Shown here: one piece after another, positions 12,129 to 34,946 of the stretch | Numbering within the stretch: position 1 is the stretch's first letter | How the letters are laid out: every line of letters begins with the position of its first letter | DNA from: Clostridiales bacterium | GTDB lineage: Bacteria > Bacillota > Clostridia > Christensenellales > Aristaeellaceae | Assembly: GCA_015056325.1 (NCBI GenBank) | Contig: SVGL01000004.1 | Coordinates: forward strand, 62,001 to 126,000 | Reading direction: 5' to 3' | DNA: 64,000 nt | Program-made: the position numbers and the translations under genes | Notes under the pieces: generated by a model | Seen by the model: the letters and a program-made list of their open reading frames with translations, nothing else | What the model was told of the DNA's origin: nothing | The model's database searches: none

Positions 12129-12150
12129 TGGTGATGAACACATATTATTG

Positions 12151-12192: not shown

Positions 12193-12260
12193 TTTATGCG
12201 TAATCTGCGTCCGGGAGCGCAGGTAAGTATCCTGGGCGTATCACGAAGGAAGGCGTTACC

Positions 12261-12871: not shown

Positions 12872-13017
12872 TTATTGTGGGTTATTGCATATACCACTTT
12901 TATTGTTGTGCTGTTTTTCCCAGAGGCGGAATGTTGTTTTCGCCTTCAGACTGGCTGAAAGGAAGCGCCGGCACAAAGGCCCGCTTATGGGCGTTTGTGC
13001 ACAGGACACGGCTGAAG

Positions 13018-13671
13018 ATGAACGTCAATCCAAACTTGAAGGGCGACGCGCAGCTAAAACGCTGTGCCGGATATCTGCGCCTCAAGCGCATACAGGATAT
13101 TGTACTGTCGGTGCTGGGGTTGGTGCTGTTATTCCCGGCAATGGTGCTGATTGCGTTGGTGATCCTGATTGAGAGCCCGGGAGAGAGTCCCATTTTTGTA
13201 CAGACCCGGGTGGGAATGAATGGCAGGAAATTCAAATTTTTCAAATTCCGCACCATGCATCCGAATGCTGAGAAGCATCTGCAGGAGCTGCTGGATAAAA
13301 ACGAGATGAACGGCCCGGTCTTCAAGATCAAGGATGATCCCCGTATCACCAGGGTGGGAAGAATCCTTCGCAAGACCAGCATGGACGAGCTGCCTCAGCT
13401 GTGGAATATCCTCAAGGGTGATATGAGCCTTGTGGGCCCCCGGCCGGCGCTCCCCCGGGAAGTGTCCCAGTATGACAAGAATGCCTGGCAGCGCCTGATG
13501 GTCACTCCGGGCCTGACCTGCTATTGGCAGATTCAGCCCAAGCGCAACAGCCTCAGTTTTGAAAAATGGCTGGAGCTGGATCTCAAATACATCGAAGAAC
13601 GCAGCCTCCTGGTGGATTGGAAGATCATGTTCGGCACCATCAGCGCCGTTCTGCACATGGAAGGCGAGTAA
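13018..13671 (+). CDS. Undecaprenyl-phosphate sugar phosphotransferase (initiating glycosyltransferase)
   Basis: This membrane enzyme loads the first sugar-1-phosphate onto undecaprenyl phosphate, starting polysaccharide repeat-unit synthesis. The 217-residue form has the short-type (WcaJ/PglC-like) architecture. One N-terminal membrane helix (IVLSVLGLVLLFPAMVLIAL) is followed by the bacterial sugar transferase core: VGMNGRKFKFFKFRTM, KTSMDELPQLWNILKGDMSL, VGPRPALP and MVTPGLTCYWQI. The start is uncertain. The ATG at 13018 gives the usual length but lacks a good ribosome binding site, and an in-frame ATG at 12931 would add 29 residues. GTG at 12877 coincides with the likely transcription start and is improbable. 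It is first gene of the polysaccharide locus. Confidence 0.92.
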   Translation: MNVNPNLKGDAQLKRCAGYLRLKRIQDIVLSVLGLVLLFPAMVLIALVILIESPGESPIFVQTRVGMNGRKFKFFKFRTMHPNAEKHLQELLDKNEMNGPVFKIKDDPRITRVGRILRKTSMDELPQLWNILKGDMSLVGPRPALPREVSQYDKNAWQRLMVTPGLTCYWQIQPKRNSLSFEKWLELDLKYIEERSLLVDWKIMFGTISAVLHMEGE

Positions 13672-13698: not shown

Positions 13699-14823
13699 AT
13701 GCGGATTGCAATGCTTGGCCACAAGCGGGTTCCCTCCCGGGAGGGCGGCGTCGAGATTGTGGTGGAACAGCTGGCGGTCAGGATGGCCCAGCGCGGGCAT
13801 GAGGTCACCTGCTATAACCGGGGCGGCCATCATGTCAGCGGTAAAGCCTTTGACGCCAGGAAGCAAAGGGAACACAAGGGCGTCCGTCTGTTGACGGTCC
13901 CCACGGTGGATGCGAAGGGCTTTGCAGCCATGAGCGCTTCCATCTTCGCCTCCATCCGGGCTGCCTTTGGCAGGTATGATGTGGTGCACTTCCACACTGA
14001 GGGCTCCTGTGTAACGCTGTGGCTGCCCAAGCTGATGGGCAAGCGCTGCATTGTGACGGTGCATGGTCTGGACCACCAGCGCAGCAAGTGGGGCTGCCTT
14101 GCCCGCAAGTATATTCTCTGGGGCGAGAAGGCTGCAGCCCGCTGGGCGGATGAGATCATCGTGCTGAGCGAGGGTGTGCAGACCTACTTCCGCAGCGTGT
14201 ACAAGCGGGAGACGAGGCTGATCCCCAACGGCCTGACGCTGATCAACCGCCGCGGGCCGCAGATCATCACCGACAAATATGGCCTGGAGAAGGATGGGTA
14301 CATCCTGTACCTGGCCCGCATCACCCCGGAAAAGGGGGTGCATTACCTGATCGAAGCTTACAAGGCGCTGGAGACGGACAAGAAGCTGGTCATCGCCGGC
14401 GGTGCCAGCGATGCAGCGGATTACTACCGCCGTCTAAAAGAGATGGCATCAGATGATCCGCGCATCATCTTCACTGACTTTATCCAGGGCCAGGAGCTGG
14501 AGGAATGGTACTCCAATGCTCTGGTGTATGTGCTCCCCTCCGAACTGGAGGGCATGCCCATCAGCCTGCTGGAAGCCATCAGCTGCGGCAACTGCTGCCT
14601 GGTGTCCGACATTGCGGAGAACCGCAATGTGGTGGGGGAGAGCGGCTGCACCTTCAAAAGCGGCGACGCTGACGACCTTGCTGAGCAGCTGAAGGTGCTG
14701 CTGGCAGACCCTCAGAGGATTGAGTGCTGCAGAAATGCATCCCGCAAGCGCAGCCAGGAGCTGATCGGTTGGGACGAGGTGACCGACCGTACGCTGGCAG
14801 CTTATCAGGGGAGTGCTCAGTAA
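13699..14823 (+). CDS. Glycosyltransferase, GT4 family
   Basis: A 374-residue GT-B fold enzyme adding a sugar to the lipid-linked repeat unit, probably at the inner membrane face. The N-domain opens RIAMLGHKRVPSREGGVEIVV, with the glycine-rich acceptor loop, and later shows DVVHFHTEG and CIVTVHGLDHQR. The C-domain has YLARITPEKGVHYLIEAY, LVIAGGASDA and the nucleotide-sugar E-x7-E pattern LPSELEGMPISLLEAISCGN. An AGGAGG site precedes the ATG. It follows the initiating transferase by 27 bases. Donor and acceptor cannot be predicted. Confidence 0.95.
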   Translation: MRIAMLGHKRVPSREGGVEIVVEQLAVRMAQRGHEVTCYNRGGHHVSGKAFDARKQREHKGVRLLTVPTVDAKGFAAMSASIFASIRAAFGRYDVVHFHTEGSCVTLWLPKLMGKRCIVTVHGLDHQRSKWGCLARKYILWGEKAAARWADEIIVLSEGVQTYFRSVYKRETRLIPNGLTLINRRGPQIITDKYGLEKDGYILYLARITPEKGVHYLIEAYKALETDKKLVIAGGASDAADYYRRLKEMASDDPRIIFTDFIQGQELEEWYSNALVYVLPSELEGMPISLLEAISCGNCCLVSDIAENRNVVGESGCTFKSGDADDLAEQLKVLLADPQRIECCRNASRKRSQELIGWDEVTDRTLAAYQGSAQ

Positions 14824-14841
14824 GGAGTTGAAACAAACGCA

Positions 14842-15642: not shown

Positions 15643-15740
15643 GGGTTAAGGGCGCCTGATTCCCTCAAGTGGTTCCCTTGTTTTCCCAAGGCTACCTTGT
15701 TTTACATAGATGGAGATTCATTTCTTTAGGAGGATGAAAG

Positions 15741-18700
15741 ATGAACGTCAATTTCACCCGGCGTTGTCTGTCCATGCTGTTGGTGCTGGTCATGCTCTTC
15801 ACGATGATGCCCACGACCATCATCGCTGAGGAACTGCACGATCACACCCACGAGACGGAGTCTTCGATTGTCACTGGCAGTGACATCCTCTCTGTGCTCG
15901 AGGTGGAGCCGCTGTCCGTCAGCGCGTCTGCGTCTGCAAACTATGTGTATGCAGGCGAAGAGGCGGTGGCCGTCACGGTGAAGATTTCCGGCGGCATGGC
16001 GCCTTATACGGTGACGCTGCAGGCTGTTAAGAACAGCAGCGTGGTGTTCACCGACAGTAAGACGACGGAAGAAAACTCTGCCAAGCTGTCTTACAAACCC
16101 GCGGCCTATGGCGACTATGAGCTGGTTGTCACTGTGCGCGACGCCAGCAATGAGCAGAAGCTGACCACCGTCGGCCTGGCCGTTGCCGAGCATGACATGG
16201 AAAACGAGGCCGCCTGGGCCGCGTCTGTTTCCGGTGCTTCCGTTTCTTCTGACTGGGCCAAGAGCCTTGTTTCTGTAGCCAAGACCCAGGTCGGCTACAA
16301 GGAAAGCGAGAAGGACTTTGTCATCAAATCCGGCGAGAAGCAGGGTTACTCCCGCTACGGCGCCTGGTACGGCACGCCCTACACCGGCTGGAACAATGCT
16401 TTCCTGGCCTTTGTGGCGGAGTATGCCAAGGTGCCCAATGACGCGCTGCTGTCCGGCTCCAACTACCGCAGCTGGGTCAACGGCATGAGCGCCAAGGGCG
16501 CCTACATGAAGGACGGCTATACCCCCAAGGCGGGCGATATCGCCTTCCTGTCCGGCTCCCGCGTGGCTTTGGTCGAGAGCGTCTCCGGCAGCAACGTCAC
16601 CGTCATCGAGGGTGACGTGAATGGCGCTGTCGTTCGCAAGACCTACGCCATCTCCAAGGTGGCTGGCTTTGGCAACACCGGTCTGATGCAGGGGCTGTAC
16701 AAGGGCACTGCCACCGCCGTGCCCACCGCTGCGCCCGAGGCCACCAAGGCTCCCGAAGGCGGCGACACGCCCGTGGTGACTGCTGAACCCACCGCGACCC
16801 CCGTGCCCACTCCCGTGCCCGAGGACGAGGAGCTGGTCTTCCAGGCGACGCCCACCCCCGGTCCCGGCGTGACTGCCAAGCCCAAGGAGGACAACGATCC
16901 CCTGACCAACATGGGAAGCGCCATGGATCAGCTGATCGGCGAGCTGGATGCTGCCGCCACAGCCATTCCCATGCAGTTCTCCGAGGCGTACTACCTCATC
17001 CAGGCAGAACTGGATGCGCTGATGGAGAAGTACCTGGGCACTGCCACCCCCACCAAGGCTGAGGTTCAGGCTTTTGTGGACGCTCTGGAGCTGCAGGAAC
17101 TGTACTATATCCATCTGGAGAACGAAGACTTCTTGGCGTTTGCGGAGAGCAGCGGCATTAGCAATTATGAAATGATTGCATTGCTGGAGAGCCGGGAAAT
17201 GGCATTCCGTTTTACCGATATGGTAAGAGAGCGGTTCAATCTTCTCACGAATCAGCGTGCTACCGGCACATTCTATATTGCAAAAGACGGCCAAAACGTC
17301 CTGTCCGTCTACTATAATGGTACTAGTGGTAAGGATAATAAAGACGGTACCTATACTTTTACTGCTGCCAAGGCTACCGTAAGTGGAGAAACAACGACGA
17401 TCCGGTTGACAAATGTCACGGCGATCAAGTCCACTCTTGAATTTTCGTATTCTACTGCAAATGTTGACTGGCGAGGGGGAAAACTGAACGGTCTGTCCTC
17501 TAGTCCTACAACGGTTGTGCTTGAGCCGAATCAGTATATTGAGTTTACCATTACCGGTGGCAGTTTTCTTGCACAAGGTGCTACTGCAATAACACTGAGC
17601 AGTTTTGCTCTCACGCCTGTGATGGATACAGGCAATTTGACGATTTATCCCAGCGCCCTGGGTTCTCTTGATGTTGTTTTCTATGATGAAAGCGGCAACC
17701 GGACAACTGCTGTTCTCGCCGCTGATGCGACCGAGCCTCTGGTGCTGACGAATATTGCGATCGCTTATGGCGTGGCGGTTACGCCGCATCCGATTGGGGA
17801 TGCGCAACTGATGGGCTGGGTGAACTATGACAATCAGGCTCCGTTCCCCTGCACAAATAACGTGCTTTTCCCGCCCAAGGATACGACAACGAGCGTGATG
17901 CCGTTGTTTACAAGCGGGGGCGTGGCTTTGTGGCTGACCAATAATGCGTTGTATGACAACCTGAACACGGCGATCGCTACCGCTCAGGCGGGCAGCAGTA
18001 AGACTATCGTCCTGTATTCGGATGGTATTCTTCCTGCTGGAACCTACACCATTCCCAGCGGTGTGACGGTGCTGATTCCCTTTGATGATGCGCATACACT
18101 GTATACTACCAAGCCAGCTTTGGTGAAGTCTGGCTCTGATAAATTTGAGACTTCCATATATCGCACGCTCACAATGGCTGACGGCGCTAACTTGGTCATC
18201 AACGGTGCATTGAGCTTGTCCAACAAGGTGTTTGCGGGCGGCGGCGGTCAGGATCACTGTGGTTCTCCGTATGGTGAGCTCAGTATGATCCGGATGGAAG
18301 GCAGCAGCAATATCACGATCGAAAATGGCGGCGCGCTGTATGCCTATGGTTTCATTACCGGAAACGGTAGTGTGACGGCTAAAAGCGGCGCTGTTGTGTA
18401 TGAGTGCTTCCAGTTTGAGGGCTTCCGCGGCGGCACGAAGACGACAAGCATGAGTAACCAGGTTTTCCCGCTGAGTCAGTACTATATTCAGAACATTGAA
18501 GTGCCGATGCGTATCTATGCCGGTGCCAAGGAGTACAGTTTCACGGGCGCTGAGGTTTCAGATACGGCGGCAGGCTCTTCGGTTGATTTCCTGAGTTCGT
18601 CGTCTGGCGCAATGTTCTTGCTGAGCTCGGGTTATGTTGAAAAGCGCTACGATGGCAGTTCTGATCGCTTGCTGGTGAAGCTTGGCGGTAATGGCGTCAT

Positions 18701-21700
18701 GTCCATTTCGCCCATTGTCATGAGGCTGAATGCCCTTTATGCGGTTAACTCTGCAGAGTATGTGCTGCCGATTACCAGCAATATCACAGTTCAGGTTGAA
18801 GCTGGCTCTACTGCAAAGATTGCACAGGATATCGCGCTTCTTCCCGGCGCAAAGATTATTGTCGATGAGGGCGCGACTTGTACGCTGAACACGGGTACGA
18901 CAATTATCGTTTACGATGGCGATACCTGGGGCAACTACTGCGCTTCAACGGATAAGGCGCAGTTTATCCCGGTTCGTTATGCACCGGGCAGAACGTATAA
19001 TCGTACAAATGCTGACCTGGTGGATGCGTCGATTGTTGTCAACGGTACTGTTGATGCTTCTATCGGTAGCGCGTTTACGACGACAGGTGGTGCTGCTATT
19101 GTCAGCACTGGCGCTGGTGTTGCGAAGGTCAGCAATGTTGATAAGACGTCCAAGGTTACTTATCAATACCTCCAGGCGAGCAATACTTACCCCCAGATTG
19201 GAATTGAGTCCGCTTGGTTGAAGAACGACGACGGCTCCTTCACCAAGACCGGTGAGGTACCTGCTGATACCTACACCAAGGCGGATAACGGCTATAATGA
19301 GGTGATCTCCGGCGACGGTACCTACGCCTATACCAACGGTGTATGGAAGCTGGCCTGTGAAGGCGATGAGCATGTCTACACCAAGGTGACCTATGAGCCC
19401 ACCTGTACCGAGCCCTATACTGAGGTCTACACCTGTCAGTGCGGCGCGGTTAAGGATGTTGTGAAATCCACCCTGGATGTTGATGGCATGAAGCCCTTGG
19501 GTCACCAGGAGGAAGTCATTCCTGCTGTGGCGGCGGGCTGCGAATCCACCGGCTTGACCGAAGGCGAGAAGTGTACCCGCTGCGGCGAAATTCTGCTTGC
19601 CCAGTCTGAGGTTCCTGCGACCGGTCATACCCCCGAGGACATTCCTGCGGTCGATGCTACCTGTGAAGCCACCGGCCTGACGAAGGGCAGCAAGTGTTCT
19701 GTCTGTCAGAAGGTTCTGACGGCACAGAACGTGAGCCCCGCCCTGGGCCATGCCTGGGTCGATACGGATCACGCTGAAAACAAGGCGCCCACCTGTACCG
19801 AGGCAGGAAAGCAGTATCAGGTCTGTTCCCGCTGCGGCGATACCCAGATGGCTGTGGTGGACAAGCTGGGCCATGCGATGGATTCCGGTGTACAGATCAA
19901 CGCTACCTGTTTGAAGGGCGCACATACCCTGTTTACCTGTACCCGCGGCTGCGGTTATACCGATGAAGCCAATCTGGGAGACCCCCTGCCCCACGATTGG
20001 CAGAATGATGAGTATGTGGAAGCTACCTGCGGCGCCAACGCTTACTGGACCCAGGTTTGCAGCTATGGCTGCGGCACCAAGACTGATCCTGTTGAAGTGG
20101 AAAACACTGCTACTGGCAACCACATCTATACCATCACCTTCACGGATACCCTGAAGGAAGTCAAGGACGAGAATGGCGTTGTCACCGGCTACGCCAAGAA
20201 GGATTGTACCGTTGCCGGTACCGTCACGAAGATCTGCTCTGTTTGTGAGCATGACGCGTCCTTTGCCCTGGAAGCAACGGCTCATACCGAGGTGACTGTT
20301 CCCGGTAAGGCTGCGACCTGTACTGAGAATGGCCTGACCGATGGCAAGCAGTGCTCTGCCTGCGGCGTGATCACTCTGGAGAGAGAGATCATCCCTGCGG
20401 CACATGTCTTTGAATTTGAAGTGATTGCTCCCACCTGTACGACTCCTGGTATTACCAATGTCACTTGTGAGAACTGTAATTACTTCGGCACGAAGGATTC
20501 TGTGGATGCTACCGGCCATAACTACGTTAAGGATTCCGAACGGTCTACGGAGCCTACCTGTACCGAGAACGGTACGGAAGTCACTGTCTGTCAGAATGCA
20601 AACTGCCCTGTGCCCGAGGTGACCAATGTCGTCGACAAGCTGGGCCATGATTACAAGTCCGAGGGCGGCACCGTTGTGACCCCGCCGACTTGTAGTGTTG
20701 CAGGCTACACCACGCTGACCTGTCAGCGCGAAGGCTGTACCGCAGTCCCGGAAGTGGTGGCGGGTGAACCTGCTACCGGTATCCACGATCAGGAGATCCT
20801 GGTTCCGGGCAAGGCTGCGACTTGTACCGAGTCCGGCCTGACTGACGGCTATAACTGCTCCATGTGTGGTGATGAGCAGGTTAAGCAGACCGTCATTGAG
20901 GCCAAGCAGCATGACTGGCAGAATGCTGACCATGCCGATAACAAGGCGCCCACCTGTGATGCTGAGGGCGATCAGTACCAGATCTGTGCTAATGACAGCA
21001 GCCATACCCATTGGGTGAAGGTTGGCAAGCTGGATCACACTGCTGTCCATCAGACCATTCCTCCCAAGGCGCCGACCTGTACAGAGAAGGGCAATAACGA
21101 GTATACATACTGCCCCACCTGCGACATTACGATCGGCAAGATGGAAATCGGCGTTGATCCCGACAACCACGATATTGTAAAGGTTGGCGCGAAGGCGAAG
21201 ACCTGTACTGAGGATGGCTGGAAGGCCTATGAGTACTGCTCTCGCTGCGGCGATCCGGAGGCTGCCAAGGCGGCTGCTCTGATCCCCGCCGGCCACGACA
21301 TCGTGGAAGTGGAGGCCAAGGCGAAGACCTGTACCACCGTCGGCTGGAATGCCTACGAGTACTGTGAGTCCTGTGCTTACACGACCTACGTGGAAATCCC
21401 CGCCGGCCACGACATCGTGGAGGTGGAGGCCAAGGCGAAGACCTGTACCACCGTCGGCTGGAATGCCTACGAGTACTGTGAGTCCTGTGCTTACACGACC
21501 TATGTGGAAATCCCCGCCGGCCACGACATCGTAGAAGTGGAGGCCAAGGCGAAGACCTGTACCACCGTCGGCTGGAACGCCTACGAGTACTGTGAGTCCT
21601 GCGACTACACAACCTACGTGGAGATCCCCGCCAGCCACGATATCGTGAAGGTGGATGCTCAGGCGAAGACCTGTACCGAAAAGGGCTGGGAAGCGTATGA

Positions 21701-24700
21701 GTACTGTGAGTCCTGCGACTACACGACTTACGTGGAGATCCCTGCCAGCCACGACATCGTGAAGGTGGATGCTCAGGCGAAGACCTGTACCGAGAAGGGC
21801 TGGGAAGCCTACGAGTACTGTGAGTCCTGCGATTACACGACCTATGTGGAAATCCCCGCCAGCCATGAGCTGACCCAGGTGGAGGCCAAGGCGGCCACCT
21901 GTACCGAAAAGGGCTGGGAAGCCTACGAGTACTGTACTGTGGATGGCTGCGGTTATTCCACCTACAAGGAGATTGCTCCCTTCCACCAGAAGGTCATCAA
22001 GATCACTGAACAGGTGGATCCCACTTGTCAGGATGTGGGCCACTATGTGGATGCTGAATACTGCGAGGCCTGCACGACCTGGCTGGACGATATTCAGATC
22101 CCGCAGGTTGACCACAGCTACAAGGGCGAGGTGCTTGAGCACAAGGATCCCACCTGTTACGCGGAGGGCTACACCATCACCCAGTGTAAGTGGTGTACTG
22201 CCTCCGAGACCACTGAAACCACCCAGAAGGTTGCCCATGCCTACGACAAAGGTTACGGCGACGGCATGATGCTGGTGGACGGCGCTTGGGTCCGCGAGAA
22301 CTGTCTGGAAGGCGGTACGGTGACCTATACCTGTACTGCGGTGGGATGCCCCGAGACAGAACCCGGCCACACGAAGGTTGATGCCTACGAGGCTCTGACG
22401 GAGCACAGCGGCGCCTGGAATGAGACACTGGCTCCCACCTGTCAGACTGCGGGCACCAAGGAGCGTACCTGTGAACTGTGCCAGAAGTATGAGACGGATG
22501 TCATTGAGAAACTGACTCATACCGAGACGAATGCCTACACTGAGTATGAGGAGAAGAAGGCAACCTGTAAGGAAGCCGGCCACTCTGCATACACCCATTG
22601 TAATATCTGTAACCTGGACATCAACAGGACCGATTATGAGATCGATACTGTCAATGGCCATGATTACCAGACTGTTGCCGGCAAGCCTGCCACCTGTACC
22701 GAGACTGGTCTGGCGGACGGAAGCCAGTGTACCATTTGCAAGGAATGGGAGCTGGAACAGGCAATCATCCCCACCATCCATTCCGGTATTGCCGGCATCG
22801 AGAATGCCGTTCCCGTGACCTGCTATCAGGATGGCCACAGCGTCGGCAGCAAGTACTGTGATGTCTGCAATACCTGGTTCGAGGGCGAAACCACTGACAT
22901 GGTCGAGTGCGAAGTGGTGGAGTACGAGCGTGTTGCTGCTACCTGCACGGAGGATGGCTATGTCATCAATCAGTGTGTGTACTATACCGGCAAGGCGGAT
23001 GAGTGCGACAACACTGAGACCATCACTCTGACCAAACTCGGCCACGAGTGGGAGAGGGAAGGCGCTGCTGAGGGCTGGACGGAGACCAAGGCTCCCTCCT
23101 GCTATGAAAAGGGCGTTGAAACCCGCGAATGCGCCTGCGGCTACTCCGAGACCCGCGATATCGCCATGATCGAGCATAACTACGACAATGGCGTACCTGG
23201 CAAGGAATCCACCAAGTGGAACGATGAGACCGGCAAGTGGGAGAACTGCGTTGAAGCGGACACGATCGTGTACACCTGCCAGAACGCTGGCTGCACGGCG
23301 GACAACTCCGAAACCCATACCTACACTGACGACATCGATGTGACTGAGCATGCCTGGGTCTACGACGCCCAGGATGAACCGACCTGTACCGAACCTGGCA
23401 CTGCCAGCGGCAAGCATTGTACCCGCTGCGGTCTGGAAGAGGGCGGCGGCGAAATCCCCGCCAAGGGCCACACCTGGGATGCTGGCGTCGGTACTGGCGC
23501 CAAGTGGGACGAGGAAGCCCAGAAGTGGGTGACCGTCTCCTGTACGGAGAATGGTTCCGTGCTCTACACCTGTACCCTGTGTCAGGTGGGCAACTACACC
23601 AAGACCGAGCCTGTGACGGCTCCCGGCCATGACTGGAATGAGGGTACCGTCGCTGAGCCCGCCACCTGTACCGAGAAGGGCTCCACGACCTACAAGTGTA
23701 ATGCCTGCGGCGAAGAGGAAACCCGTGAGGACATCCCCGCCACCGGCATCCACGATCAGAAGGAACTGGTTCCCGGCAAGGATGCGACCTGTACCGAGTC
23801 CGGTCTGACCGATGGCTACAAGTGCTCCATGTGTGGTGCCGAACAGGTGAAGCAGGACGTGATTCCTGCCATCCATGACACCATCGAGGGCATCGATACG
23901 GCCATTGACGCCACCTGTACCACTCCCGGCCACGACGTGGGCAGCAAATACTGCGAAACCTGCGAGAAGTGGTTCGAGGATATCGTGATCGGCGTGAAGG
24001 CCCACGACTACACCGTTCTGGTGAAGGCTGTGGATGCCACCTGTGAAGAGGACGCATACGAAGTCAAGCAGTGTACTTGGTACAACGAGTGCGGCAAGGA
24101 ATGGACATTCAGAGATGAAGGCTCCCGCCTGGGCCATGACTGGGAGATCTCCGAGATCAAGGGCGTGGTGGCTGCCGGCGAAGTCTGGAAGCTGCTGGAT
24201 TGTGACGTTGCCGGCTTTGTCACCTATGTGTGCGGCAACGATGCTTCCCACACCAATACTCAGAACATCGAGGCGACCGGTCACCAGAATACTGAAGTGA
24301 TCCCCGGTCAGGACGCGACCTGTCTGGAGGACGGCTACAAGGACGGCCTGAAGTGTACTGACTGCGGCACGGTGATCACCGAGCGCGAAGTCATCAAGGC
24401 CAAGGGCGAGCACACCTGGGGCAGCTGGGCAACCACCACTGAGCCCAAGTGCGGCGTCGCCGGTGAGGAACGCCGTGACTGTGAGCTGTGCGACGCCTAC
24501 GAGACCAATGAGCTCGCTGCGCTGGAGCACGACTACGCCTGGGATGGCGGCAAGGTGGTTACTCCTGTCACCTGTACCACCGATGGTTACACGACCCTGG
24601 TTTGTGAGCTCTGTGGTACTCAGACCGTTGATCCTGACTCCATCATTGCCCATCAGGGCCATAAGGGACAGCTGGTTCAGGATGTTGCGGCGACCTGCGG

Positions 24701-27700
24701 CTCCGTCGGCTACACCGCTGGCGTGCAGTGCAGCGTCTGCCAGGAGTGGACGAATCCCCGTACTGAGCTGCCCAAGCTGGAGCATAAGTACGATGATGGC
24801 ATTACCACCACCGAGCCTGACTGTGAGAATGCCGGTGTGAAGACCTTCACCTGTACTCAGCCTGGCTGTACTGCGGACATTGAGGGTCACACCAAGACCG
24901 AATCCATTCCTGCCCTGGGCCATAAGCCTGTGGATGTGTCTGCGGTGGACGTCACCTGTACCACCGATGGTTGCACCGCCGGCAAGAAGTGTTCTGTCTG
25001 CGGCAAGACTCTGGAGGGCTGCGACCCCATCGAGGCTAAGGGCCACCAGGAAGAGACCATCCCCGAGGTGGAAGTGTCCTGTACGCAGGACGGCTACACT
25101 GCCGGCGTGAAGTGCTCTGTCTGTCAGGAAGTGCTGAAAGCTCCTGTGCTGACTGACGAGAAGCATCACCTGGATCTGAATCAGGTGGAAGCCCAGGCGC
25201 CCGCGTGCGAGAAGAAGGGCTGGGACGCCTACGAGTACTGCACCAAATGCGATTACACCACCTACAACGAGCTGCCTGCGCTGGAGCACAAGAAGGTTCC
25301 CGTCAAGGGCTATGCTGCAACCTGTACCGAGAACGGCCTGACTGACGGCGAGCAGTGCGAACTGTGCCGGAAGTGGTTCGTGGAGCAGACCGTAATCCTC
25401 GCAGCCCACACCTCTGTGGATGTGCCTGCGGTGGACGTCACTTGTACCGCTGATGGTTACACAGCTGGTAAGAAGTGCTCTGTCTGCGGCGAGATCCTGG
25501 AGGGCTGCGAACCCATCAAGCATGAAGGCCACAAGGAAGAAACGCTGGCGGCTGTCGCCCCCACCTGTACCGAGACCGGTCTGGAGGAAGGCAAGCAGTG
25601 TACTGTCTGCGGTACCGTGACGGTCGAGCAGGCAGTGGTGCCCAAGCTGGGCCACGAGCCCCTCACGCTGCCTGCTGTTGCTCCGACCTGTACCGAAACT
25701 GGCCTGACTGCCGGCATGGGCTGCTCTCGCTGCGATTACATCTACACCGCGCAGACTGTACTGCCCGCTGAGGGCCACAAGTACGCGGCTGTGCCCGCTA
25801 CGGATGCCACCTGTACTGAAACCGGTCTGACTGCTGGCGAGCAGTGCTCTGTCTGTGAGGACTGGAAGACCGCGCAGACCATCATCCCCGCCAAGGGTCA
25901 TACCGAAGTGCCTGTTGCCGGCGTCGAAGCTACCTGTACTGCGGCCGGCAAGACCAACGGCGTGCAGTGTTCCGTGTGTAATACCTGGATCACCGCGCAG
26001 ACCGTCATCCCCGCCAAGGGACATACCGAGAAGGATCTGCCCAAGGAAGAGGCCACCTGTACCGCTGCCGGTAGGGAAGAGGGCAAGCAGTGTACTGTCT
26101 GCGGCATCATCACCGTTGCCCAGACGGAAATCCCTGCCAAGGGCCATACCGAGATGGAAATCCCTGCGGTGGAACCGACCTGTACCGAGGCTGGCAGCAC
26201 TGCCGGCGTGGAATGCTCTGTCTGCCACACCGTGCTGACTGCGCCCACTGCTCAGGCTGCCAAGGGTCATACCGAGACCACTGTGAAGGGCTATGAAGCG
26301 ACCTGTACTGAGACTGGCCTGACTGATGGCGTGCAGTGTTCCGTCTGTGATACCTGGATTGCTGTGCAGACCGAGATTCCTGCCAAGGGTCATACCGAGG
26401 TGATCATCGATGCGGTGGCGCCCACCTGTGACAAGCCTGGTCTGACGGCTGGTAAGTACTGCTCTGTCTGTAATACGACCCTGGCTGAGCAGACCGAGGT
26501 TCCCGCCAACGGCCATACGGAAGTTGTGGATCCCGCTGTCGAGCCGACTTGTACCAAGCCTGGCAAGACCGAGGGCAAGCACTGCTCCGTCTGTAACGAA
26601 AAGATCGTTGAGCAGGAAGTGATTGACGCACTGGGCCATAATGAAGTCGTGGATGAGGCGGTTGCGCCCACCTGTACCGAAACTGGTCTGACCGAGGGCA
26701 AGCACTGCTCCGTCTGTAACGTGAAGACGATTCCCCAGAACACCATCAACGCACTGGGCCATGAGGAGGTCTTGGATGAGGCGGTTGCGCCTACCTGTAC
26801 CGAAACCGGTCTGACTGCGGGCAAGCACTGCACCGTCTGTAACGTGAAGACGGTTGAGCAGGAAGTGATTGATGCACTGGGCCATGAGGAAGTCTTGGAT
26901 GAGGCAGTTGCGCCCACCTGTACCGAAACTGGCCTGACCGAGGGTAAGCACTGCTCCGTGTGCAACGAAAAGATCGTTGAGCAGGAAGTGATCGACGCGC
27001 TGGGCCATACCGAAGTGACGGATGAAGCTGTTGCTGCTACCTGCACCGAGGCTGGTCTGACTGAAGGCAAGCACTGCTCCGTCTGTGAAGAAGTGCTCGT
27101 TGCTCAGGAACCCATCGAGGCTACCGGCCATGAGATGGATGAGGGTGAAATCACCAAGGAGCATACCTGTACTGAGGCTGGCGTGCTGACCTACACCTGT
27201 CTGAATGGCTGCGGCCATACCATTACCGAGGATATCCCTGCCAAGCATACTCCTGAAGTGGTGCCCGCAGTGCCCCCCACCTGCACCGAAACCGGTCTGA
27301 CCGAAGGCAGCGTCTGCTCCGCCTGCGGTGAGGAACTGGTGAAGCAGGAGGTTGTTGATGCTGCACATACCTGGGAGACGGTGAAGGTTCTGGCGGAAGC
27401 TGACTGTGTTAATGATGGCCGTAAGGAAGTCCGCTGTACCGTTGAAGGCTGCGGAAAGACTCAGACCATCGTGATTCCCGCGACGGGCCACACCGTGGTG
27501 GTTGATCCTGCCAAGGCTGCCACCTGTACTGAGAACGGCTTGACGCGCGGCGAGCGCTGCTCTGTCTGTAAGGCTGTGCTGGTTGCCCAGAAGGTCATCG
27601 AGGCTGCCCATACCTGGAACAAGAAGCCCTGCCAGACGGCTGGTGCAATCTGTACCCGCTGCGGCGAGACCAATGCGGAGATCCTGGTACACGATATGGC

Positions 27701-30700
27701 GCCTGCCAACTGTACCGATCCCGACACCTGTAAGTATGGCTGCGGCTATACCGAAGGCGAGGCGCTGGGCCACAAGACCGTTGTGATCGAAGCGGTCCCG
27801 GTCATGTGTGAGGATTCCGGTTGGACCGAGGGCGCCAAGTGTACTGTCTGTGGCGCGATTACCAATCACCCCAAGGAGATCCCGGCACAGGGTCATGATA
27901 TCCAGCACTACGAGGCCAAGAAGCCGACCTTCACCTCTGAAGGCTGGAAGGCTTACGACGCCTGTACCCGCTGCGCATTGTCTGACAAGGTGTCCATCCC
28001 CGCGCTGGGTGAGCAGACCATCAGCAGCTATGATGAGTTCATGAAGTACCTGCCCTATCTGGAACAGTGGGCGATTGAGTACTCCAAGCAGAACCCTGGC
28101 ACCGATCCTGTGGCACTGGTCATCAAGTACATCCGTACAGGCGTTGACCGCTACAACTCTGGTTCCTGGGGCATCATGGCTGGTTACGAGAACCCCGGCT
28201 TTGCCAAGTACGTTGGTGAGCAGGAGGATCTCCTCAATGTTGAGTTTGAGAATATTGAGGATATGATCAAGGTTTCCGGCCTGAAGAATCTGACGGAATT
28301 CCAGCTGCCCAATGGCAACAAGACTGACATCGGTCATATGTTCGGCACCATGGACATCACCTACCACAACAATGGCAGCGTGAACCATGCCGACGTCGGC
28401 GGCTGGGCGGGCGACCTGGTTGACCTGCTGAGTACTGCTGATCATACCGATCATAAGGCTGCCATTGAGAGCGCTGGCGACGATTTTGAGGCGCTGGTCT
28501 CCGTGATCCGCTATGAGCTGCTCGGCCATAGCTTCAACCATGGCGACACCTTCTCCAAGACCGATATCTACGGCGACCTGGATGCCTTCTACGTCATGGA
28601 AAACCTTGATGCTGAGCATTACAGCGCCGGCGATATGACTGCCCTGTTTGACAGCTACTTCACCACCTCCCTGGATGACAAGTTCCGTGCCGGCTACCTG
28701 CTGGAGAACCGTCTGGAGGGCGTGTCTACCCGCAGCGCAGTCCGTGAGGCTGTGTACAATGCCTACACCGGCAACAATGTCATCAATACCCTGGAAGGTA
28801 CCCGTGATTTCAACAACAGCGATCTGTCCGTGCTGCGCCAGGCTGTCTGCTACGCATTTGCTGACTACCTGTGCCAGCTGGCTGGTGACTATGTTGACGT
28901 CACCGAGAATCCCTACCTGGATGTGTTCCAGTCTTCCTACAGTTCTCTGGCGCCTGGCATCAAGATGGAAACCCACTACGCCAAGTCCGCGGACAATAAG
29001 CAGATGGTGTACTACCTCGCTTATGCTGACGTGGGCCGCGAGGATGTTGACATCCTGGCCAGCTACGAGAGCCGTTACCCCGAGCAGTGGGGTATGGCCC
29101 GCGTGCTCGACCAGGCAAACTTCGTGCAGGACCTGTACACCGATCCCGAGACGGATCTGTACATTGAGAACTTCAACGTCATCGTGGGTATCAACGGCTC
29201 TGGCTACAACATGCAGACCGGTAAGCCCTCAGGCTTGCTGATCATGCACGGCCATGAATACCATCCCATCGATGGCAACGGCTTCTTCGGCATCCACAAC
29301 AACGGATATGCCGTCATCGGCACGACCGAGGAGTACAACAGCATCTACAAGGGCCAGATCCGCGAGGCAATCGCTGGCTTTGGCACCATGCTGGTCAAGG
29401 ATGGCGAGATTGCCATCACGGCTGAGAGCAACTACTACGCCAACCGTGCATCCCGTACCGCTGTTGGCATTACGGCCACCGGCCGCGTGGTGTTCATGGT
29501 TCTGGATGGTCGTCAGGAGCCCAGAAGCTGCGGCGGTTCCATGATCGAGATTGCACAGATCATGCGCAACGCTGGCTGCGTCCAGGCTATTAACCTGGAC
29601 GGCGGCGGCTCCTCCACCTTCGTTGCCCGCGAAGCCGGCAGCGAGGATCTGGCTGTGTGCAACAATCCTTCCGACGGCGTTTCCCGTTCTGTTTCAACTG
29701 CCCTGATGATGGTCTCTACTGCTCCCAGCTCCACGGCCTTTGACCATGCGCTGGTGAAGTCTCAGTACAGCAACCTGACCATGGGCAGCAGCGTCCAGAT
29801 GGAAGCCACCGGCGTGAGCGCCACCGGCAAAGTGGTGGATCTGCCCGAGGGGACGACCTGGGCCGTCTCTGACGACTCCAAGGGCGTTATTACCGAGGAA
29901 GGTATCTTCACTGCGCTGGTCAGCGAAGGCACTGTGGATGTCCAGCTGCTGCTGGGCGAGACCATTCTGGGCCAGAAGACCCTGAACCTGGTCATCCCCG
30001 ATCAGCTCTACTTCACCAAGGAAAAGGTTGACGCTGTTTACGGTTCCTCCGTTGAACTGCCGCTGAGGGCTCGCTACCAGGGCAAGGATGTGGCATTCAA
30101 CGAGAATGACATCGTCTTCACCCTCAGCACCAATGGGGCGGGTGACATGGACGGCCTCAGCTTCAAGGCTGTGGAAGCGTCCGAAGTTGTCATGGTCAAC
30201 GTGGTTGCAGCCCTGGCCCAGAAGCCGGAGGCGAATGCTGCGATCGACATCATCCTGTACAAGCAGGGCGAGAACAGCTTTGACTTCGATCAGGCCACCG
30301 GTGGTTCCCGTATCCTGGCATGGCTGCGTCATGTGTCCAACTCCTACACTGCGGATGACTCGATCTACTACATCCTCGATCCCGCTGAGGACATGGTCAC
30401 AACCTACTCAATTGCGCTGGATATGACCCAGATTCCGATTCCCAAGCGTCTGGAAGACCTGACCTACATGCTGCCCGGCTCTGATATCGAAGGCGCATGT
30501 GCCTGGACCTTCCTGCTGCAGCTGGCCGAACGTATCTCTGTGATGACGACTGTTGAGCCCAAGATCACGTTCGATCCCAACTTCGACGTGGACTACAGCG
30601 AAATCAAGCTGATCAATGAGTACTTCACGCTTGACAGCAAGAGATTCGACGAGGAAACCAATACCTTGACCCTGACGCTGCACTGGATTGACCAGACCGC

Positions 30701-32372
30701 TGCCATCGAAGCAGCGACGGCAAACCCGCTGTGCATGGTCACCGGCTTGAAGGTTACCCCGAAGAAAGATGCAGTCTGGAATGATAAGGATCAGCTCAAG
30801 CCCGTCCATTCCGGCGACGTGAGCTACAGGATCTACATGCGTGCCAGCGGTTTGTATTCCTTCTCTCAGAAGGCTGAAAACCAGGCAATCTTCGGTCTGT
30901 ATCCCTACATCAATCCCAACGACGAGAGCGAGAAGGGCGGTTACTTCCAGGATACCTACACCGAGTTTGAGGATAGCTACACCCTGGTTCGCAGCCTCAA
31001 GAATGGCTGGTATAACGAGGATGGCGGCTTTGTCTACTACGTCAACGGTATTCGCAATACCGGCATCCAGGCGGTTGATGGACTGTACTACGACTTCGGT
31101 GAGACGGGTGTCAACATTGGTAAGAAGACCTACACCGGCATGCATGTGATGGATGGCTACACCTATTACATCCAGCTGGGCGTGATTGCCAAGGGCTGGA
31201 ACATGTACAATGGTGAATGGTACTACTTCGACAATACCGGTAAGGGTGTTAACGGTCCCCGTGATCACACTACGCCAGGCGTCACCTTTGTGTTTGAGAA
31301 TGGTAAGCTGATGGGTGGCTGTTGGCTAGAGGATGAGAAGGGACGTCAGTACTACTACGGTCCCGAGCATTACTACGGCGGCTGGAAGAGCATTGATGGC
31401 GAGGACTACTTCTTCGAGAAGTACTACGTGCTCACCGGCGTCGTTCCGGTTCATGAGTCTCATGACCTGATCGACTACTGGTACGAGTTTGCTGAGGATG
31501 GCAGGAAGATCGGCCTGGCCAAGGATGGCTTCTACGAGAACGAGGGCCAGATCTTCTTCGTCAAGGATGGTGTCTCTGATCAGAATGGTCTGATCTACTT
31601 CGAAGGCGACTACTACTACCTGCGCTATAACAGCAGTCCCGTTCGCAACGAGACATACTGGATCGTTGAGGAAAAGCTCAACGGTCTGCCCAAGGTGGCT
31701 GGCGCGTACCGCTTCGATGCGGATGGCCGCATGATTCTGGATGAGATGATCGTGGAAGAGGGCGGTTCCTACTACTACTACAAGGACGGCCCGCGTGTAG
31801 ATAGTGCTGGCGTTGTCAAGGTGGACGGCTACTATTACTACATCTCCGGCGGCGGCAAGGCCCGCGTGAACCAGGTGTACGACATCAGCACCTCCAAGAC
31901 AAATGGCTTGATCCCTGCTGGTTCCTACTGGATCGATGAGTATGGTCACATTCTCACAGATACTGCCATTGCTCCCAATAAGGATGGCAAGCTGTCCTAC
32001 TACAAGGATGGTAAGCTGACAAAGAACGCAGGTCTGGTGCTGGTGGACGGCGAGTATTACTACGTCACCAGCAACGGTACTGTCGTGACTTCTGCTGACG
32101 CCGCAGTCTCCAAGCACAACTATCTGCTCCCGAGCAGCACCTATACCTTCGATGAGACGGGTAAGATGATCTTGGAGCGTGTGCCTGGCGATGCCGACGG
32201 TGACGGCGAGGTGAACATGGATGACGTGCTGCTCATCATGGAGCATGACTCCAAGGGCAATGTTGTCATCAATGCCCGTAACGCTGAGGTCACTGAGGAT
32301 GATCTGATTGGCACCAGCGACGTGCTGCTTATCATGCAGTACCTCTCTGGCTGGGACGTGACCCTCAAGTAA
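15741..32372 (+). CDS. Giant secreted multidomain protein (5543 residues): pseudo-CHAP, Cys3-His repeats, phosphodiester glycosidase, cell-wall-binding-like repeats, dockerin
   Basis: AGGAGG precedes the ATG at 15741. Domains in order: signal peptide (1-30); Ig-like domain (about 50-150); CHAP/NlpC-like domain (about 170-320) in which the expected catalytic Cys is Asn218 (GWNNAF) and the expected His is Arg274 (SRVALVES); Thr/Pro linker (about 325-390); mixed and beta-rich region (390-1205); about 68 repeats of roughly 40 residues with three Cys and one His (1206-4090); an unrecognised domain (4090-4475); a phosphodiester glycosidase (NAGPA-type) domain with [11 protein letters not shown] (about 4476-4660); Ig-like and cohesin-like beta segments; Tyr/Trp-rich cell-wall-binding-like repeats (about 5080-5460, e.g. 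[12 protein letters not shown]); and a C-terminal dockerin ([18 protein letters not shown], second half degenerate). It is probably exported and docked on the surface. Its place between glycosyltransferase genes suggests a role with the polysaccharide. Confidence 0.93.
19356..28010 (+). repeat. Cys3-His repeat array (about 68 units) within the giant gene
   Basis: By hand count about 68 units, each near 120 bases, encode the pattern xTC-TE-x-G-L-x-x-G-x-x-C-S-x-C, about 14 residues, then G-H. Spacing is C-x9-11-C-x2-C-x12-16-H, which could bind a metal or form disulfides. The first Cys is almost always TGT within ACCTGTAC, whereas the others are more often TGC, so codon-level similarity persists between units. 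A few units have lost residues; the last reads PTFTSEGW, with Phe for the first Cys. Confidence 0.9.
21288..21858 (+). repeat. Near-identical 114-base tandem repeats
   Basis: Five consecutive periods of exactly 114 bases (equivalent points at 21288, 21402, 21516, 21630, 21744 and 21858) encode 38-residue units of the type [18 protein letters not shown], then [19 protein letters not shown]. The first three differ at only a few bases and the last two form a second near-identical pair. This shows recent duplication or gene conversion inside the older, diverged array. Confidence 0.92.
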
Positions 32373-32668: not shown

Positions 32669-32749
32669 TCGAATGTGTCTGTTTGCGGGCTATGAGGCAT
32701 TCCGCGCGGCCTGCTTTGACGAAATGTAAGCATGAAAGGAGGGCTGCGG

Positions 32750-33766
32750 ATGATCATCCTGATGAACTGTCTGACCGATGCGCCGGACGAAGGCGGCGTG
32801 AAGCTGGCCAACCATCTGGCGCGGGTGATCAAGGCAGCCCGCCCCAATACCACGGTTGTCTCCTACGGCAAGGAAGCGCGGGGCTGCGATGTGCACATTC
32901 CTGTTAAGAACAAGCTGATGATGAACGGTGCGCTGGCCCGTTTTCTCAGGGGACGCAAGGAAGAGGTGCTCTATTTCCCGGCCTACACCCGCATGCTGGA
33001 TACGGCGGTGCACACCTTCGTGATCTCGCTGTTTGTGCGGAGCGGGGTAAAGACGGTAATTGCCATGCACGGCCCGATGAATGGCTTGGCAAAGCTGCTC
33101 TTCCGCCTGAGCAGGGCGCAGATCATCACGCTGTCCGATGAAACCAATGACATCTTCCGCAGCGTGGTCGGCAAACGTGCCCTGCAGCTGAAGACCGGCG
33201 TGGATACCAGTAGGTTCCACCCTGTCAGCGCAGACAAGAAGGCAGCCCTGCGGCAGAAATACGGCCTCCCTCAGGACAAGCCTGTTGTGCTGCATGTGGG
33301 CCATATGAAGGTCAGCCGCAATATCGGCGTTATGCAGCAGCTGGCGGCAGACTTCCATGGTCTGCTGGTGACCAGCACCATGACCGCAGGGGAGGCGGAC
33401 GCTGCGCTGCGGGAAGAGCTCCTGTTGCAGAGCAACCTGACCATTATCGACACGTACCAGCCCCGGGTGGAGGAGCTTTACCAGCTGGCAGACGTCTACC
33501 TGTTTCCAGTAACGCAGGCGCGCAACTGCATCGACGTGCCCCTGTCCGTGCTGGAGGCAGCGGCCTGCGGTATTCCCGTGGTGGGTACCGATTACGGCGA
33601 GATGAAGGCGCTGCTGGGTCAGCCCGGATTCTATCCGCTCAAGGATTTTGCTCCGCAGGCCATGAACAGCCTGCTCCGCCAGGCGGCAAGGGAAAGCCTG
33701 TCTCCCCGGGAAGGCGTGCTGGCTTATGACTGGCAGCTGGCGTTATCCCAGCTGGACGCTGAATAA
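32750..33766 (+). CDS. Glycosyltransferase, GT4-like
   Basis: A 338-residue GT-B type enzyme. The N-domain is short (MIILMNCLTDAPDEGGVKLANHL, then TVIAMHGPMNGLAKLLF). The C-domain has the standard VVLHVGHMKVSRNIGVMQQL start, VEELYQLADVYLFP, and the E-containing donor site DVPLSVLEAAACGIPVVGTDYGEM. The start at 32750 is preceded by AAAGGAGG at 7 bases; the in-frame ATG at 32732 precedes that site and is rejected. The gene follows the structured gap after the giant protein gene and is 16 bases from the next glycosyltransferase gene. Specificity unknown. Confidence 0.88.
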   Translation: MIILMNCLTDAPDEGGVKLANHLARVIKAARPNTTVVSYGKEARGCDVHIPVKNKLMMNGALARFLRGRKEEVLYFPAYTRMLDTAVHTFVISLFVRSGVKTVIAMHGPMNGLAKLLFRLSRAQIITLSDETNDIFRSVVGKRALQLKTGVDTSRFHPVSADKKAALRQKYGLPQDKPVVLHVGHMKVSRNIGVMQQLAADFHGLLVTSTMTAGEADAALREELLLQSNLTIIDTYQPRVEELYQLADVYLFPVTQARNCIDVPLSVLEAAACGIPVVGTDYGEMKALLGQPGFYPLKDFAPQAMNSLLRQAARESLSPREGVLAYDWQLALSQLDAE

Positions 33767-33782
33767 GCAAAGGAGCTATCGC

Positions 33783-34946
33783 GTGAAGAAGGTACTGTTC
33801 GTTATCTTTTCTCTGGGTTACGGCGGCGCTGAGCGGAGCCTGGTGAATCTGCTGGCAGAGCTGCCCAGGGACAAGTACCAGGTGGATCTGCTGCTGTTCC
33901 GGCGGCAGGGGGATTTCCTCCAGCAGGTGCCGGAATGGGTCAATGTGCTGGATACCCCGGAGGATATCCGCCGCCTGTACGGACCGATGAAAAGGGCCGG
34001 ACGGTACCTGCTGCCCAAGGTGGCGGGAATTGGTCTGGCGCGGCTGGCGCGCAGAACCCGCAAGAGCCAGATCGCCTGGCGGTGGAAGCATGTGTTCCGC
34101 CGGCGCATCGGGAAGCTGCCCGGGCATTACGACGTGGCGGTGGCCTACGCAGGCGGAGAGAACATGTACTTCATTGAGGATCATGTCTCTGCGGACCGCA
34201 AGATCGTCTTCATTCACAATGACTACCGGGCTGCGAAGTATTCCCAGAAGGACGACGCGCCCTATTTCGACCGCATGGATGCCATTGTGTCCATCTCGGT
34301 GAAGTGCGTGGACGTGCTCCGGGAGATCTTTCCCCAGCATGAAAGCAAGCTGCACTATTTGGAGAATATCACCTCCTCCGCGCTGGTGCGGGCGAGGGCA
34401 GAGGCCTTCACGCCGCCTGAGTACGAGGGGGGCGATGTCAACATCCTCTCGGTGGGGCGGCTCTGGCCTCAAAAAGGCTTCGACCTGGCCGTTGATGCGG
34501 CGGCCATCCTGCGTCAGCGGGGGCTTCATTTCCGCTGGCACATCCTGGGAGAAGGCGCACTGCGCGAGGAACTCCAGGCGCAGATCGATGCCAAAGCCCT
34601 CAAGGATGTGGTCTTCCTCCATGGCACCCGAGACAATCCCTATGCCTACATGAAGGGCTGCGACGTGCTGGTACAGTCCTCCCGGTACGAGGGGAAATCC
34701 GTTGTGCTGGATGAGGCAAAGATGATCTGCACACCCATCGTGGCCACTGCTTATCCCACCGTGGGGGATCAGGTGCAGGATGGCCGGGAGGGTATTGTCG
34801 TACCCATGACGGCGGATGGCATTGCTGACGGTGTGCAGCGCATGCTGGAGGACGCCAAGCTGCGCGGGGAGATCATCGCTTATCTGGCCGCCCACGAGTA
34901 CGGCAACCAGCAGGAAGTGACCAGGTATATGGCGCTGCTGGACTGA
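33783..34946 (+). CDS. Glycosyltransferase, GT4 family (GTG start)
   Basis: A 387-residue GT-B enzyme. The opening KKVLFVIFSLGYGGAERSLVN, with its GGAE acceptor loop, is a hallmark of GT4 polysaccharide enzymes. The C-domain shows ILSVGRLWPQKGFDLAVDAA, WHILGEGALREELQ and the donor-site stretch VQSSRYEGKSVVLDEAK. It starts with GTG at 33783, 16 bases after the previous stop, with AAAGGAG at good spacing; the 19 codons upstream in the same frame overlap the previous gene and have no ribosome binding site. It presumably adds one sugar to the repeat unit. Confidence 0.93.
   Translation: MKKVLFVIFSLGYGGAERSLVNLLAELPRDKYQVDLLLFRRQGDFLQQVPEWVNVLDTPEDIRRLYGPMKRAGRYLLPKVAGIGLARLARRTRKSQIAWRWKHVFRRRIGKLPGHYDVAVAYAGGENMYFIEDHVSADRKIVFIHNDYRAAKYSQKDDAPYFDRMDAIVSISVKCVDVLREIFPQHESKLHYLENITSSALVRARAEAFTPPEYEGGDVNILSVGRLWPQKGFDLAVDAAAILRQRGLHFRWHILGEGALREELQAQIDAKALKDVVFLHGTRDNPYAYMKGCDVLVQSSRYEGKSVVLDEAKMICTPIVATAYPTVGDQVQDGREGIVVPMTADGIADGVQRMLEDAKLRGEIIAYLAAHEYGNQQEVTRYMALLD

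What the first reader, a model, noticed from the sequence alone, without database searches (positions are those of the whole stretch)
15741..32372. A 5543-residue surface protein embedded in a polysaccharide biosynthesis operon
Seen: a single uninterrupted gene of 16.6 kb combining pseudo-CHAP, about 68 Cys/His repeats, a phosphodiester glycosidase, cell-wall-binding-like repeats and a dockerin. It is flanked on both sides and on the same strand by glycosyltransferase genes. Known: NAGPA-type enzymes cleave phosphodiester-linked sugars; dockerins bind cohesins; cell-wall-binding repeats hold proteins to wall polymers. Inferred: the protein may trim, display or be scaffolded by the locus's own polysaccharide, giving a genetically linked glycan plus giant adhesin or fibre.
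Basis: partly seen in the sequence, partly recalled or inferred. Interest (0 to 1): 0.8.

Follow-up and report, generated by a model that had tools for sequence, protein, structure and literature searches.

The report
Giant two-enzyme protein in glycan locus
A very long secreted protein of an uncultured gut-type Clostridia bacterium carries two predicted enzymes that would cut phosphate-linked sugars, and many of its relatives sit inside gene clusters that build surface sugar chains, which suggests that it may work on those chains rather than being only an adhesin.

Summary
In detail: one open gene, 15741-32372 (+), 5543 aa, between glycosyltransferase genes. The ~285-aa helical region before the phosphodiester glycosidase (NAGPA) matches no Pfam family and looks like a TelC-type lipid-phosphate hydrolase (link weak at one step). 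A TelC + NAGPA 'two-enzyme core' in large wall-binding Bacillota proteins was published in 2025 (PMC12419801) and read there as a conflict system.

What appears new here is context. The six of 308 family genomes that carry this NAGPA subtype have it in polysaccharide loci, as do 23 of 33 wider loci with readable neighbours; 10 of 33 show no such genes. Other parts vary: Cys/His repeats range from none to about 60, tails differ, and the dockerin-like end is rare. A ~670-aa N-terminal module is fused here but a separate neighbour gene in six loci. A small secreted partner gene sits just upstream.

Best reading (0.45): a wall-held enzyme that releases or trims phosphate-linked glycan made by the locus. 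Main rival (0.3): a stalked antibacterial effector. No activity was tested. New variant of a known kind.

The parts
15741..32372 (+). giant secreted protein, 5543 aa
   Evidence: open frame without stop or N; relatives in G011, G010, G288, G286
15741..15827 (+). signal-peptide-like N-terminus (about residues 1-29)
   Evidence: hydrophobic leader ending ...TIIAEE; read by eye, no predictor run
16278..16700 (+). pseudo-CHAP (NlpC/p60-like) domain without the catalytic Cys and His
   Evidence: Pfam CHAP 25.6 bits; WNNAF/SRVALVE against WCGMF, WCAMF and KHVGLVE in relatives
17361..19370 (+). N3 module (residues 541-1210): fused here, a separate neighbouring gene in 6 loci
   Evidence: blastp 34-48% identity; alignment A10; InlB-B-repeat Pfam in 11 of 17 members, no family in the window's
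19506..28007 (+). Cys/His repeat stalk, about 66 units, most of 38-53 aa
   Evidence: HMM; invariant H, C, CxxC in 3-unit alignment A6; confident beta model of three units
28038..28890 (+). TelC-like helical domain; Asp-rich motif DIYGDLDA at 28563
   Evidence: helices up to model residue 282; no Pfam/NCBIfam; profile match to L099 and to PG-binding-fused L097; L099 vs TelC 5UKH E 0.14 at the Asp-rich motif; D176 and D180 invariant in 31 of 31
28896..29720 (+). NAGPA phosphodiester glycosidase domain; DGGGSST at 29598
29727..30005 (+). Ig-like (Big-type) domain after NAGPA
31134..32090 (+). cell-wall-binding-like aromatic repeats
   Evidence: Choline_bind_3 below cut-off; PspA/PspC-type repeats in NCBIfam, below cut-off
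32184..32345 (+). dockerin-like C-terminus
   Evidence: PF00404 17.8 bits, below cut-off; 35-56% identity to 14 other places in the genome
14842..15642 (+). small secreted partner, 266 aa, two copies of a ~105-aa domain
   Evidence: mature-domain HMMs from single lineages find only such neighbours among 4781 ORFs; 4 of 308 family genomes
12877..13671 (+). initiating sugar-phosphate transferase (Bac_transf)
   Evidence: PF02397 E 1e-67
13699..14823 (+). GT4 glycosyltransferase
   Evidence: PF00534 E 1.4e-28
32732..33766 (+). GT4-type glycosyltransferase
   Evidence: PF13692 E 5.6e-12
33726..34946 (+). GT4 glycosyltransferase
   Evidence: PF00534 E 1.8e-28
34983..36011 (+). GT2 glycosyltransferase
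   Evidence: PF00535 E 2.4e-37
36024..37319 (+). Wzy-like polymerase
   Evidence: Wzy_C E 5e-6, below cut-off
37309..38867 (+). Wzx-type flippase, split in two frames (37309-37974 and 38034-38867)
   Evidence: pieces 64% and 52% identical to an intact 518-aa relative; Pfam Polysacc_synt only E 0.0076, below cut-off

Best explanation
A secreted enzyme, probably held at the wall, of the locus's own glycan pathway. The giant, with its signal-like leader, would be bound outside the membrane by its aromatic repeats. The TelC-like domain would cut the phosphate bond between undecaprenyl carrier and glycan, and NAGPA would cut phosphodiester-linked sugars, so that glycan made by the surrounding sugar transferase, glycosyltransferases, Wzy and Wzx is released, trimmed or recycled. 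The Cys/His repeats are a stalk of variable length (zinc binding by the conserved H, C, CxxC pattern is inferred), N3 is a linked accessory module, and the small secreted gene upstream is an accessory of the giant. Shown: gene, NAGPA domain, locus context, repeated co-occurrence, N3 fused or adjacent. Likely but not proven: the TelC identity. Inferred: that both enzymes are active, their substrates, anchoring, and self-directed action.
For: NAGPA by Pfam and fold. TelC-like domain: hhalign prob 97.3/E 2.2e-11 and 95.2/E 2.7e-8 to two remote relatives outside the giants, one of which meets TelC 5UKH at the Asp-rich motif; two motif Asp residues invariant in 31 of 31. Core complete in 36 of 37 loci, the 37th being contig-cut. 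Context: the six NAGPA-subtype genomes of 308 have glycan-type neighbours; 23 of 33 wider loci. Among 95 of the 96 nearest genes, 14 hit Glycos_transf_1, 9 Glycos_transf_2, 5 Polysacc_synt, against no such family with two or more members among 79 genes taken elsewhere in the window's genome (contigs chosen for their dockerins and the window's outer flanks, not at random). Complete tails with >= 8 aromatic-repeat motifs: 19 of 23 in glycan loci; other tails 0 of 5. G194 has a NAGPA giant without a TelC match, with the partner gene, also in a glycan locus.
Against: 10 of 33 loci show no glycan gene within the held flank (Pfam). The tail/context contrast is not significant once kinship is allowed for: 2-3 independent pairs, never opposite. 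The TelC link is indirect: the family's own profiles do not find 5UKH, the window stretch's best PDB sequence match is an unrelated chain named Rab family protein (E 1.3e-4 overall, no single stretch passing), and three unrelated chains outscore 5UKH for L099. TelC itself is an antibacterial toxin (PMC5555719) and the published reading of this core is conflict (PMC12419801, section 31). The window's flippase is split, so its locus may be inactive or mis-assembled. No activity, localisation or glycan structure is known.
Confidence: 0.45

Rival explanations
1. A stalked antibacterial effector. The long repeat stalk carries a TelC-type lipid II phosphatase and NAGPA to neighbouring cells; the small secreted gene upstream is its immunity protein, as TipC is for TelC. 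The glycan locus is a variable surface island in which such genes ride.
For: TelC cuts lipid II and is toxic from outside the cell (PMC5555719, passages read). Burroughs et al. interpret TelC+NAGPA proteins as conflict systems because their binding domains recombine (section 31 read). Tails and stalk length vary widely here too. A small secreted or lipobox-bearing partner lies next to the giant or N3 in the window, G011, L094, L077, L084, L086 and L088.
Against: The partner also sits beside a NAGPA giant in which no TelC-like match was found (G194). Of 21 loci with a complete N-terminus and at least 1 kb upstream, 5 have the partner. No match of the partner profile to a solved protein below E 0.2. 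Conflict alone does not predict the repeated glycan-locus setting.
Confidence: 0.3
2. A degradative, nutrient- or phosphate-gaining surface enzyme aimed at foreign phosphoglycans, part of a small cohesin/dockerin system.
For: Dockerin-like end, a cohesin domain on a Cys/His-repeat protein in the same genome and other dockerin-bearing proteins. Cell-surface phosphoesterases that use teichoic acid as phosphate store are reported for B. subtilis (PMC11488536, passages).
Against: A crude dockerin motif is in 2 of 30 complete tails of the 37 loci. In the window and many relatives glycan-making genes surround the core.
Confidence: 0.12
3. Mainly a giant adhesin or fibre; the enzyme domains are binding relics.
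For: Length, repeats, N3 and wall-binding-like tail; the CHAP domain has lost its catalytic residues here.
Against: The TelC-like and NAGPA motifs are conserved across 31 and 37 aligned sequences while repeats and tails come and go.
Confidence: 0.08

Closest known systems
TelC + NAGPA large proteins of Bacillota (Burroughs, Nicastro, Aravind 2025, PMC12419801)
   Same: two-enzyme core of TelC-type and NAGPA domains; wall-binding beta-hairpins; Ig-like domains; optional NlpC/p60-type domain
   Different: section 31 and the passages seen give no glycan-locus setting for them, no Cys/His stalk, no N3 module, no small upstream partner; its supplementary tables were not seen; it reads them as conflict proteins
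TelC of Streptococcus intermedius (PMC5555719 passages; PDB 5UKH)
   Same: Asp-rich motif; predicted action outside the cell on undecaprenyl-linked phosphate
   Different: TelC is an Esx-secreted effector with immunity protein TipC; here a signal-like leader, huge wall-binding-like protein, NAGPA fused; sequence similarity seen only through an intermediate
NAGPA / DUF2233 phosphodiester glycosidases (PF09992; 3ohg, 6pkg)
   Same: fold and DGGGS motif
   Different: part of a 5.5-kaa surface protein in a bacterial polysaccharide locus
Aap/SasG G5-B repeat stalks
   Different: no significant fold match (best E 0.18); Cys/His units
Giant surface proteins of Apilactobacillus (PMC12863079; seen in a search listing only)
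   Same: very large extracellular proteins
   Different: not compared here

Membership tests
prok-TelC (lipocone superfamily) | sequence relation to TelC toxin domain 5UKH | tested here: inconclusive
   family profiles find no 5UKH hit; relative L099 does at E 0.14, 42 residues on the Asp-rich motif, below three unrelated chains
prok-TelC (lipocone superfamily) | conserved Asp-rich motif | tested here: met
   window DIYGDLDA, L099 DDLNADVD, 5UKH DDYKADLD; D176 and D180 invariant in 31 of 31
prok-TelC (lipocone superfamily) | lipocone fold | tested here: inconclusive
prok-TelC (lipocone superfamily) | His (H2), Glu (H3), Asp (H4) active-site positions | not tested
   named in PMC12419801 section 7; not mapped onto the model
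prok-TelC (lipocone superfamily) | lipid II / C55-PP phosphatase activity | not testable with these tools
   needs enzyme assay
NAGPA phosphodiester glycosidase (PF09992) | curated profile above cut-off and matching fold | tested here: met
TelC+NAGPA large proteins (PMC12419801) | both enzyme domains plus wall-binding/Ig-like domains in one secreted protein | tested here: inconclusive
   NAGPA and Ig-like part met, wall-binding repeats below cut-off, TelC part likely but indirect
CHAP / NlpC-p60 peptidase | catalytic Cys and His | tested here: not met
   Asn and Arg in the window; intact in G288 and G286
type I dockerin (PF00404) | profile above curated cut-off | tested here: not met
   17.8 vs 22.9 bits; hence 'dockerin-like', though 35-56% identical to 14 other places of the genome
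choline-/cell-wall-binding repeats | profile above curated cut-off | tested here: not met
   19.2 vs 27 bits; called 'wall-binding-like'
TelC-TipC type immunity pair | partner found only with TelC-bearing proteins | tested here: not met
   partner also beside a NAGPA giant without TelC match in G194
TelC-TipC type immunity pair | partner neutralises the effector | not testable with these tools
   needs a toxicity assay

The most novel reading that the evidence does not exclude
The giant is a terminal processing enzyme for Wzx/Wzy-type glycans in monoderm gut bacteria: the TelC-type domain releases the finished chain from undecaprenyl pyrophosphate (or passes it on) outside the membrane and NAGPA trims the remaining phosphodiester-linked sugar, while the aromatic-repeat tail recognises that same glycan, so that a 'toxin' domain turns out to be a glycan maturation enzyme.
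Probability: 0.2. Interest if true: 0.85.

Novelty: new variant of a known kind. Interest (0 to 1): 0.6.

Why it matters
If the locus link means function, a protein class now read as weaponry may be part of how Gram-positive gut bacteria release, trim or fasten their surface polysaccharides, a step for which the Lipocone paper itself notes that terminal transferases of several polymers have escaped identification (PMC12419801, section 19 passage). It gives a defined core (about 730 aa), a fused-or-adjacent accessory module (N3), a small secreted partner and a repeat stalk with no Pfam match above cut-off in the window's protein, all directly testable.

Tried and rejected

Calls that led nowhere or were corrected: script error, redone; wrong frame; G286 row read on the wrong strand, redone in 34; sliding repeat alignment, replaced by 49; codon model from one species, replaced by 56; alignment too variable; bad codon model, redone in 104; stopped after the pair test and two counts; rest in 116; one seed was a wrong ORF, redone in 120. 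In one search the iterated search drifted to an unrelated lipoprotein ORF in L077 (minus strand), dropped; L087 and L095 partners joined only by iteration and are not counted. The up/down display mixes strands; counts come. Rows dropped: one gene of 96 from A7, one of 27 from A13; loci with cut tails and L092 from the tail table.
Full report
Observation. The window is contig C27:62001-126000 of a 3.06-Mb, 63-contig draft genome rated 84.87% complete and 5.25% contaminated. The gene at 15741-32372 (+) is one frame of 5543 codons. Pfam gives CHAP just below cut-off, NAGPA strongly, and choline-binding and dockerin matches below cut-off. The neighbours on the same strand are a Bac_transf sugar transferase, a GT4 and a small secreted gene upstream, and two GT4s, a GT2, a Wzy-like and a Wzx-type gene downstream; the Wzx is split over two frames, its pieces 64% and 52% identical to an intact 518-aa relative.

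Relatives. In the GTDB family, 5 of 308 genomes match the TelC-like stretch and 6 of 308 have the NAGPA subtype at E <= 1e-20. None of the five is among the 120 genomes rated at least 90% complete and at most 5% contaminated; one of the six is. Broad samples gave matches in 2 of 398 (phylum) and 3 of 391 (class) genomes, the window's own included. One scan of genome contigs gave 37 loci, whose titles are MAGs, many naming ruminant gut samples. In 36 of 37 the TelC-NAGPA core is complete, the other being cut by its contig.

Context. Of the 37 loci, 33 have at least one neighbour gene of >= 120 aa by my own simple gene caller; 23 of these have a GT4, GT2, sugar transferase, Wzx or Wzy type gene by iterated HMM searches seeded with window and G286 genes: 15 of 23 with upstream genes, 18 of 28 with downstream genes, 10 on both sides. 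Ten have none: L064, L069, L071, L072, L073, L074, L079, L080, L081, L092. Pfam scans of 15 genes from five of them and 26 of 27 genes from four more list no glycosyltransferase among the 25 families shown of 26 and of 52; L092 was scanned only as part of the tally. By Pfam, 95 of the 96 nearest genes include 14 Glycos_transf_1, 9 Glycos_transf_2, 5 Polysacc_synt, 4 LicD and 3-4 Stealth matches. Of 79 genes of up to 900 aa elsewhere in the window's genome, no glycosyltransferase family has two or more members (one search shows 25 of 109 families, sorted by members); these genes came from contigs fetched for other reasons. In the family set the six NAGPA-subtype genomes have glycan-type neighbours: G000 (both sides), G011 (upstream Bac_transf 77% and a GT4-type gene 28% identical; downstream is off the contig), G010 and G286 (downstream only seen), G288 (both sides) and G194. 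G116 has Bac_transf (70%), GT4 (65%), partner and a giant with CHAP-type, N3 and repeat regions, cut by the contig end inside its repeats.

Tails. Among loci with a complete tail and readable neighbours, 19 of 23 with eight or more aromatic-repeat motifs (crude pattern) are in glycan loci and 0 of 5 with other tails are (Fisher p 0.0013). The five offer only 1-5 neighbour genes each, some of them pieces of the giant itself, and a pairing that allows for kinship finds 2-3 independent pairs, never opposite, which cannot reach significance. On the tree of 36 cores plus the window the glycan label needs 8 changes against a shuffled mean of 11.4 (8 of 500 as low). So the tie between wall-binding tail and glycan locus is a lead.

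Variable parts. Cys-rich triplets by a loose pattern range from 0 to 64 per protein, several proteins being contig-cut (61 in the window). Three units fold confidently as beta units (pLDDT 94.8) with invariant C and CxxC and invariant or nearly invariant His, but have no significant PDB match. The CHAP domain lacks Cys and His in the window and G011 and has them in G288 and G286. The dockerin-like end is rare. The genome has one cohesin hit over cut-off, on a protein that itself carries Cys/His repeats, beside a cohesin-like-plus-dockerin gene (the second read by eye).

Accessories. The N3 module (residues 541-1210) is fused in the window, G011 and ten further loci, and is a separate gene next to the giant in L070, L084, L086, L088, L091 (just upstream) and L095 (third downstream). 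Such fused-or-adjacent behaviour argues for a shared task. The gene at 14842-15642 encodes two copies of a ~105-aa domain; mature-domain HMMs made from single lineages recover, at E <= 0.05 among 4781 ORFs, only the partner genes of the window, G011, L094, L077, L084, L086 and L088, all beside the giant or its N3 neighbour (the separate L087+L095 profile finds only itself). In 308 family genomes it is found in 4: G000, G011, G116 and G194; a second, weaker G194 match also lies near GT2- and GT4-type genes. Several copies carry a lipobox-like Cys (by eye). In G194 it precedes a 2397-aa NAGPA and wall-binding-type giant in which no TelC-like match was found.

Explanation. The recurring features are a secretion-type leader, NAGPA, usually TelC, usually a wall-binding-like tail, and often a glycan locus. 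Both enzymes would act on phosphate-linked sugars outside the membrane, where Wzx/Wzy-type glycan intermediates are (established pathway knowledge). I therefore favour release or trimming of the locus's own glycan (0.45) over contact-dependent antagonism (0.3). Steps shown: anatomy, conservation, context. Steps inferred: activity, substrate, anchoring, self-direction, zinc binding.

Novelty. The two-enzyme core is published; the glycan-locus setting, stalk, N3 and partner were not found in the passages read or in the search listings named under Tried and rejected. Hence a new variant of a known kind.

Noticed in passing
window 37309-37974 and 38034-38867: Wzx-type flippase split over two reading frames; relatives such as G286 have one intact gene of about 518 aa. 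Real break or assembly error is open.
   Followed up: partly
window 18945-28976 (-): a 3343-aa open frame antisense to the Cys/His repeats, most likely a by-product of the repeat codon pattern
   Followed up: no
L065:1782-2873; L068:1939-3012; also L067, L075, L084, L086, L091: a radical-SAM-type gene (by eye; Pfam tally has 3 such) 82-95% identical between these loci (98% for the near-twins L084/L086), while six of their TelC-NAGPA cores (L068 is cut) are 59-64% identical, twins 93%; a similar gene by eye in G288 11372-12463; not seen in the window's locus
   Followed up: partly
G000:C29 about 14-23 kb (L040, L041): cluster of dockerin-bearing proteins with a cohesin on an 836-aa Cys/His-repeat protein: a small cohesin/dockerin system
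   Followed up: partly
L041:10205-12097: 631-aa protein with a different Cys/His repeat type and a dockerin-like end (by eye)
   Followed up: no
window 40200-41564: glycerol-1-phosphate-dehydrogenase-like gene (NF002022 172 bits, below cut-off 413) close downstream of the glycan genes; could hint at phosphoglycerol on the glycan
   Followed up: no
L092:2143-4953: second NAGPA-like protein with wall-binding-type tail directly upstream of the giant (by eye)
   Followed up: no
G286 contig C57, oriented locus 14482-15804: 440-aa protein with CHAP Cys and His in place, kin to the giant's N-terminus, as a separate gene near the same locus
   Followed up: partly
L113:2753-9946 (-) (G194): hundreds of residues of TEEP/VEEP repeats in a NAGPA giant without a TelC match
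   Followed up: no
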